Shown here: one piece after another, positions 1 through 9,468 of the stretch | Numbering within the stretch: the stretch's first letter is position 1 | Layout: each line of letters opens with the position of its first letter | NCBI GenBank assembly: GCA_002899805.1 | Contig: POCB01000097.1 | Location: 1 to 47,854 of the forward strand | DNA from: Fervidicoccus sp. | GTDB lineage: Archaea; Thermoproteota; Thermoprotei_A; Sulfolobales; Fervidicoccaceae | Direction of reading: 5' to 3' | DNA length: 47,854 nucleotides | The notes under the pieces: generated by a model | What the model saw: only the letters and a program-made list of their open reading frames with translations | Told to the model about the DNA's origin: nothing | The model's database searches: none | Made by a program: the position numbers and the translations under genes

Positions 1-43
1 AAGAGCCTCGGCGGACTTTGCCCGATACCCCGATATGAAAGGA
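1..43 (+). other. tRNA-like 3' tail of a truncated RNA gene at the window edge
   Basis: The first bases read like the inner part of a tRNA 5' half: GAGC (3-6) could be the 3' strand of a D-stem, and GGCGGA (10-15) resembles an anticodon-stem 5' strand. They are followed by the 12-mer GCCCGATACCCC (20-31). The same 12-mer follows the 5'-half tRNA at 9201-9212, and in both places it starts 13 bases after GAGC. The beginning of this sequence lies outside the window, so its nature cannot be settled. No T-arm or acceptor 3' strand follows. Confidence 0.25.
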
Positions 44-150
44 TATTACAGCTAGATAATATAATTTTCGTCTTCTTTCTCAAACAGAGTATTTCGATAA
101 AATTTCATATTTCATTGAATATAAATATAGAATAAAGGTCCAATGAACAT

Positions 151-9122: not shown

Positions 9123-9136
9123 AAAAATTTTTAATT
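9123..9136 (+). promoter_or_regulatory. BRE/TATA-like promoter of the 5'-half tRNA
   Basis: A purine-rich stretch followed by TTTTTAAT (around 9127-9134) lies about 30 bases before the first acceptor base at 9162. This is the spacing expected for an archaeal tRNA promoter with transcription starting at or near the 5' end of the RNA. Confidence 0.55.
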
Positions 9137-9161
9137 CCCCCGAACACAGAAAGCAAAACGA

Positions 9162-9220
9162 GGGCCCGTGGCTCAGCCTGGTAGAGCGGCGGAGGTCAGA
9201 GCCCGATACCCCCTATTTTT
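9162..9220 (+). tRNA. 5'-half tRNA gene with its own T-run; split-tRNA candidate
   Basis: The sequence has a complete tRNA 5' part: acceptor strand GGGCCCG (9162-9168), T8-G9, D-stem GCTC (9171-9174), D-loop AGCCTGGTA with invariant A14, GG and A21, D-stem GAGC (9184-9187), then G and GCGGA, which resembles an anticodon-stem 5' strand. After that the tRNA pattern breaks: there is no recognisable anticodon loop, T-arm or 3' acceptor strand. GCCCGATACCCC follows (9201-9212) and then CTATTTTTT, a likely terminator. No matching 3' half was found on either strand of the window. The best reading is a trans-spliced 5' tRNA half, of the kind described in Nanoarchaeum, Caldivirga and some Desulfurococcales. 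The alternative is a tRNA fragment left by recombination. The amino acid identity cannot be read. Confidence 0.55.
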
Positions 9221-9309
9221 TGCTCTCATCATTTTTCCAAAACCAAGCTATACGATCCACTTCAAGACACTATATTGGTCTAAGAAATGAGTTTATCTTA
9301 AAAAATAGA

Positions 9310-9375
9310 ACAACTCAGATACCCCAGAGAGGCTCATCGCCTTGCTCACTCGGCATGACTCTCATCATCGTTCAA
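9310..9375 (-). ncRNA. C/D-box sRNA (2'-O-methylation guide) candidate
   Basis: On the minus strand, box C ATGATGA (9368-9362) is followed by a degenerate D' (CCGA), a C'-like CGATGAG and a final box D CTGA (9318-9315). GAAC before box C and GTTC after box D could form the short terminal stem, and TATTTTT follows as terminator. The guide just before box D ends in CTCTCTGGGGTAT. By the N-plus-five rule it would direct methylation to the second C of ATACCCC in its target. A TATA-like AAATATATTT lies about 30 bases upstream. The target is not identified. Size and box order fit archaeal C/D sRNAs. Confidence 0.5.
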
Positions 9376-9430: not shown

Positions 9431-9468
9431 TTAGGGCAAGCTACCCCGCCCCAAAGGCAAGTCTTCCA
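9431..9468. repeat. Possible decayed IS200/IS605-type terminal hairpin (site A)
   Basis: GGGCAAGCTACCCCGCCCC followed by AAAGG resembles the GC-rich foldback that borders many archaeal IS200/IS605 elements, but the second arm is imperfect here. It lies just downstream of cdvC. No transposase remnant is visible next to it. This is the weakest of four similar sites in the window. Confidence 0.25.

What the first reader, a model, noticed from the sequence alone, without database searches (positions are those of the whole stretch)
9123..9220. Self-standing 5'-half tRNA gene: split-tRNA candidate
A TATA box at the right distance, a complete and correctly paired tRNA 5' part (acceptor strand, T8, D-arm with all invariant bases), then loss of the tRNA pattern, a GC-rich tail and a T6 run within about 20 bases. 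No 3' half lies downstream or anywhere else in the window. This is the layout of trans-spliced 5' tRNA halves, known from only a few archaea, in which the GC-rich tail pairs with a complementary leader on the 3' half. A fragment left by element integration is the main alternative. A minus-strand C/D-type RNA (ATGATGA at 9232-9226, CTGA at 9199-9196) over the same bases is less likely.
Basis: partly seen in the sequence, partly recalled or inferred. Interest (0 to 1): 0.8.

Follow-up and report, generated by a model that had tools for sequence, protein, structure and literature searches.

The report
Split lysine tRNA gene, both halves
This archaeon encodes its lysine tRNA (anticodon CUU) as two separate half-genes on opposite DNA strands that must be joined at the RNA level; such split tRNAs are rare but known, and the close relatives found here show intact, intron-containing, tandem-split and fully separated versions of the same gene.

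Summary
The finding is right, and the missing partner is in the window. The 5' half of tRNA-Lys(CUU) (31-nt exon, 9162-9192) carries a GC-rich tail. The start of its 3' half lies at the window's left edge on the minus strand (34..1), cut off by the contig end. Tail and leader share a perfect 12-bp complement (GCCCGATACCCC/GGGGTATCGGGC), and the junction (30/31) forms a canonical bulge-helix-bulge. The halves are 9.1 kb apart on opposite strands, so this cannot be a cis intron. Two same-genus genomes conserve both halves with their leaders. The joined product is a perfect tRNA-Lys(CUU), and the 99%-complete relative has no intact copy. The genome holds two PF01974 tRNA-endonuclease paralogs. 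The same split was published for Staphylothermus and Nanoarchaeum (Chan et al. 2011), so the kind is known. New here: a second family carries it, and its members show intronless, cis-intron (same site), tandem-split and separated states at a locus next to TBP; the initiator tRNA-Met is also split at 30/31 in the 99%-complete relative. No RNA data were available, so transcription and splicing are inferred.

The parts
9126..9136 (+). TATA-like promoter element of the 5' half (AATTTTTAATT), 26-36 nt upstream of the tRNA
   Evidence: AT-rich TATA-like stretches at similar distance in G001, G002, G003
9162..9192 (+). 5' exon of tRNA-Lys(CUU), 31 nt (acceptor, D-arm, first four nt of the anticodon stem; junction 30/31 after 9192)
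   Evidence: identical in G001, G002, G003, G007
9187..9193 (+). 5' side of the bulge-helix-bulge: central helix CGGC (9187-9190), bulge GG^A (9191-9193)
   Evidence: sequence; same motif in cis-intron genes of relatives
9193..9212 (+). 3' tail of the 5' half; 9201-9212 GCCCGATACCCC pairs with window 31..20
   Evidence: 12 bp without G-U, duplex -29.6 kcal/mol
9216..9221 (+). T6 run, probable transcription terminator of the 5' half
1..34 (-). Start of the 3' half: leader (34..7) and first 6 nt of the 3' exon (GCTCTT, 6..1); cut off by the contig end
   Evidence: continued in G001 (L029) and G002 (L028)
20..31 (-). Leader segment GGGGTATCGGGC, exact complement of 9201-9212
6..12 (-). 3' side of the bulge-helix-bulge: central helix GCCG (12..9), bulge AG^G (8..6)
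   Evidence: sequence
57..68 (-). TATA-like element AAAATTATATTA of the 3' half
   Evidence: AAAATTATAT(T/A)A at similar spacing in G001 and G002

Best explanation
A trans-spliced (split) tRNA-Lys(CUU) gene. Inferred mechanism: the halves are transcribed from their own promoters as short RNAs. The 5' half's GC-rich tail pairs with the 3' half's leader (12 bp), which brings the ends together and forms a bulge-helix-bulge (central helix CGGC/GCCG, bulges GG^A and AG^G). The tRNA splicing endonuclease cuts both bulges, and the ligase (presumably RtcB) joins nt 30 to nt 31, giving tRNA-Lys(CUU), the only tRNA with this anticodon. Shown by sequence: both half-genes, complementarity, junction motif, conservation, absence of an intact copy in the near-complete relative, endonuclease genes. 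Inferred: transcription, pairing in vivo, cleavage and ligation. Inferred history: a tRNA-Lys gene beside TBP acquired a 30/31 intron, which became a tandem split (as in G002); later rearrangements with breakpoints between the halves separated them.
For: Both halves in the window on opposite strands. Both conserved in G001 (different contigs) and G002 (tandem). Tails and leaders differ between lineages yet match within each genome (runs of 10-23 bp): in a 15x15 tail-by-leader comparison the best duplex energy always falls within the genome's own genus or, for three f9 genomes, within a group of related f9 genera. Joined halves give a perfect cloverleaf with anticodon CTT; a natural intronless copy (G006) has the same 30/31 sequence. 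Relatives carry 13-32-nt cis introns at the same 30/31 junction. No intact tRNA-Lys(CUU) in G002, where tRNA-Lys(UUU) is intact. Two PF01974 tRNA-endonuclease paralogs in G000 and in six of the seven genomes searched. S. marinus and S. hellenicus came up without being named, at the published coordinates.
Against: No transcript data. The window's 3' half is truncated after 6 nt of exon, so the rest is taken from sister genomes. The G000 assembly is 79% complete with some damaged-looking tRNAs, so absence of an intact copy in G000 itself is not proven. In G002 alone the arrangement could also be read as one transcript with a 156-nt intron. RtcB was not searched for.
Confidence: 0.95

Rival explanations
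1. Remnant of a mobile element integrating in a tRNA gene: the 5' half is a non-functional fragment.
For: tRNA genes are common integration sites; an insertion-sequence-like end motif is seen nearby by eye.
Against: The tail pairs perfectly with a 3' half leader, both are conserved in three species and replaced by different matching pairs in other genera; no intact copy in G002.
Confidence: 0.02
2. Ordinary cis-spliced tRNA with a very long intron, with an assembly rearrangement in G000.
For: In G002 the halves lie in tandem with 156 nt between exons; G000 has other assembly oddities.
Against: G001 also lacks tandem halves (different contigs, different neighbours); G003 has them about 88 kb apart on opposite strands in a one-contig genome. 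A conserved TATA-like element precedes the 3' half in all three same-genus genomes.
Confidence: 0.03
3. A minus-strand C/D box sRNA over the same bases (ATGATGA 9232-9226, CTGA 9199-9196).
For: The two motifs are present.
Against: ATGATGA is absent from the corresponding sequence of G001 and G002; the motif spacing is unusual. A better conserved C/D candidate lies elsewhere, at 9313-9372 minus.
Confidence: 0.01

Closest known systems
Split tRNA-Lys(CUU) of Staphylothermus marinus and S. hellenicus (Chan, Cozen & Lowe 2011, PMC3218864)
   Same: Same tRNA, same 30/31 junction, same 31-nt 5' exon length, same AG^GCTC junction sequence, canonical BHB and a GC-rich trans stem of about 13 bp.
   Different: Different family; unrelated tail/leader sequence; halves here on opposite strands 9.1 kb apart (about 4.8 kb, same strand there); 5' half follows the TBP gene here.
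Split tRNA-Lys(CUU) of Nanoarchaeum equitans (Randau et al. 2005, as tabulated in PMC3218864)
   Same: Same tRNA and 30/31 junction, halves on opposite strands.
   Different: Distant lineage; halves about 71 kb apart; six split tRNAs per genome.
[quoted passage not shown]
   Same: Tandem 5'-3' half-genes with a promoter between them, like G002.
   Different: Different tRNA, joined at 37/38; separate transcripts were shown by northern blot there.

Membership tests
Trans-spliced (split) archaeal tRNA | 5' and 3' tRNA halves encoded at separate loci | tested here: met
   Window 9162-9192 plus and 6..1 minus (truncated); full 3' halves in G001-G003
Trans-spliced (split) archaeal tRNA | Complementary GC-rich tail and leader | tested here: met
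   12 bp perfect; different matching pairs in other lineages
Trans-spliced (split) archaeal tRNA | BHB motif at the junction | tested here: met
   CGGC/GCCG with bulges GG^A and AG^G; same motif in cis-intron relatives
Trans-spliced (split) archaeal tRNA | Joined product is a complete tRNA | tested here: met
   ARAGORN tRNA-Lys(ctt) on the 5' exon plus the G001/G002 3' exon
Trans-spliced (split) archaeal tRNA | No intact gene for the same isoacceptor | tested here: met
   G002, 99% complete; G000 itself is too incomplete to decide
Trans-spliced (split) archaeal tRNA | Separate promoters for the halves | tested here: inconclusive
   TATA-like elements by inspection only; the one before the 3' half is conserved in three species
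Trans-spliced (split) archaeal tRNA | Crenarchaeal-type tRNA endonuclease with two subunits | tested here: met
   Two PF01974 paralogs in G000: C49 E 1.1e-29 and C23 E 1.4e-9
Trans-spliced (split) archaeal tRNA | Separate half transcripts and spliced product detected | not testable with these tools
   No RNA data

The most novel reading that the evidence does not exclude
This family records tRNA splitting step by step and more than once: intronless or cis-intron tRNA-Lys(CUU) at 30/31, then a tandem split with an internal promoter (G002), then separation by different rearrangements whose breakpoints fall in the short spacer between the halves (G000 and G001). The initiator tRNA-Met of the same genus made the same move at the same 30/31 position, from a cis intron still present in sister genera. 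Splits would be late, repeated derivatives of introns, and the spacer a rearrangement hot spot.
Probability: 0.5. Interest if true: 0.7.

Novelty: new member of a known kind. Interest (0 to 1): 0.58.

Why it matters
Whether split tRNAs are ancient relics or recent derivatives of intron-containing genes is an open debate (PMC3218864, PMC4390854). Here closely related genomes show the intronless, cis-intron, tandem-split and separated forms of one gene at one locus, which supports late splitting and makes the order of events testable. A second split tRNA in the genus, the initiator tRNA-Met, suggests the 30/31 site was used twice.

Tried and rejected
ARAGORN and Rfam find nothing in the window, as expected for half genes. 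The minus-strand C/D idea over the half was dropped (not conserved). A pattern search of G000 for the T-arm plus CGGGCCC found only other tRNAs and two contig ends, which first looked as if the partner was missing; the sister genome's 3' half used as a query revealed the left-edge fragment. The G000/G002 difference looked like one clean inversion, but the conserved sRNA next to it does not fit that, so only 'rearrangement with a breakpoint between the halves' is claimed. The loose order-wide pattern with one mismatch was dominated by other tRNAs and was replaced by a BHB-specific one.

Full report
Observation. The window carries a TATA-like element (9126-9136), a perfect 31-nt tRNA 5' part (9162-9192), a GC-rich tail and a T6 run (9216-9221). 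No program reports a tRNA in the window. The window is contig C154 of a 1.46-Mb, 312-contig, 79%-complete genome.

The partner. Two same-genus genomes have the same 5' half downstream of the TBP gene, and in G002 a 3' half follows on the same strand with the leader GGGGTATCGGGC. Searching with that 3' half found the start of the window's own 3' half at the left edge, minus strand 34..1, cut by the contig end after six exon nt. The halves lie 9.1 kb apart and are transcribed away from each other, so a cis intron is excluded for this arrangement.

Pairing and junction. Tail 9201-9212 and leader 31..20 are exact complements over 12 bp. Across 15 genomes with both halves the tails and leaders differ by lineage but match within each genome (10 to 23 bp runs). 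Cross-lineage runs are mostly shorter; the exceptions are same-genus pairs, related f9 genera, and one 11-nt run of G007's tail with the G139 leader. The junction is a canonical BHB: exon side AGAG-CGGC-GG^A, leader side GCCG-AG^G-CTCT. Joined, the exons form a perfect tRNA-Lys(CTT). G006 has a natural intronless copy with the same junction sequence and G004 a 26-nt cis intron at this site.

Completeness of the tRNA set. In G002 (99% complete) ARAGORN reports 42 tRNA genes at the RF00005 loci, including intact Lys(TTT) and no Lys(CTT); BLAST with the 3' half finds no other Lys(CTT). G000 encodes two PF01974 endonuclease paralogs, as expected for the heterotetrameric crenarchaeal enzyme (PMC3218864).

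Distribution. In 214 genomes of the order, 50 have a tRNA-Lys(CTT) 3' part with the 30/31 BHB. Twenty-nine genomes of family f2 have cis introns of 13-23 nt. In f9, 15 have no 5' exon within 260 nt upstream and one (G194) has a 32-nt cis intron. In f1, G001, G003 and G007 are split, G002 is a tandem split, and G004 has a cis intron. Both halves were read for ten f9 genomes and for five f1 genomes, the window's 3' half being partial.

Locus history. In G006 an intact tRNA-Lys(CTT) lies about 160 nt downstream of TBP on the same strand; in G000-G003 the 5' half holds that place; in G004 the cis-intron gene is next to TBP on the other strand. In G001, G002 and G003 the 3' half is followed by the same convergent gene. 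Relative to G002, G000 and G001 differ by separate rearrangements, each with a breakpoint between the two halves. The conserved sRNA near 9313-9372 shows that the G000 change is not a single clean inversion. That the tandem state came first is an inference from G006 and G002. Whether the f1 and f9 splits are independent is also inference: tails and leaders are unrelated and both families contain cis-intron members, but an old split with later re-fusions is not excluded.

Second split tRNA. In G002 the initiator tRNA-Met is also split at 30/31: 5' half at C2:38731 plus, 3' half near C2:36356-36269 minus, tail GGGCTACCGCC matching leader GGCGGTAGCCC (11 bp); G001 has the same 5' half. G003, G006 and G007 have cis introns at that site. 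The joined product, with a second intron removed by hand, folds as tRNA-Met(CAT). Its state in G000 is unknown. In the papers read, split tRNA-iMet is listed only for N. equitans, at 37/38.

Verdict. A real split tRNA of a known kind in a family for which the searched literature records none, with an informative evolutionary series. Expression is untested.

Noticed in passing
G002:C2:36269-36356 (L250) and C2:38731 (L261, L269); G001:C23:10983 (L260): Initiator tRNA-Met is also split at 30/31 in this genus, with an 11-bp tail/leader match; sister genera G003, G006, G007 have a cis intron at the same site.
   Followed up: partly
L260-L267, flanks of the tRNA-iMet genes: The tRNA-iMet 5' leader (GGCGGGG) and 3' trailer (CCCCGCC) are complementary across the family, with a matching change in G003 (GGCGGGT/ACCCGCC); possibly a processing stem.
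   Followed up: no
window 9313-9372, minus strand: C/D box sRNA candidate (weak Rfam matches below gathering score), 95% identical over 60 nt in G002 beside the DUF1464 gene.
   Followed up: partly
L009, L010, L011, L012 (G000 contigs C169, C121, C5, C73): Three G000 tRNA genes lack the anticodon arm and one has a 4-nt loss; L010 is a central deletion relative to the intact G002 tRNA in L225. Probably assembly or amplification errors.
   Followed up: partly
window 9434-9462: gggcaagctaccccgcccc resembles an end of an archaeal IS200/IS605-type element (by eye, from memory).
   Followed up: no
G134:C1:858573-858914 (L142, L216): In family f9, G134 has tandem 5' and 3' halves of tRNA-Lys about 320 nt apart with a 23-nt match, about 1 kb upstream of a TBP gene.
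   Followed up: partly
G002:C9:44080-44318 (L227): tRNA-Pro(CGG) with an unusually long predicted intron (108 nt by ARAGORN).
   Followed up: no
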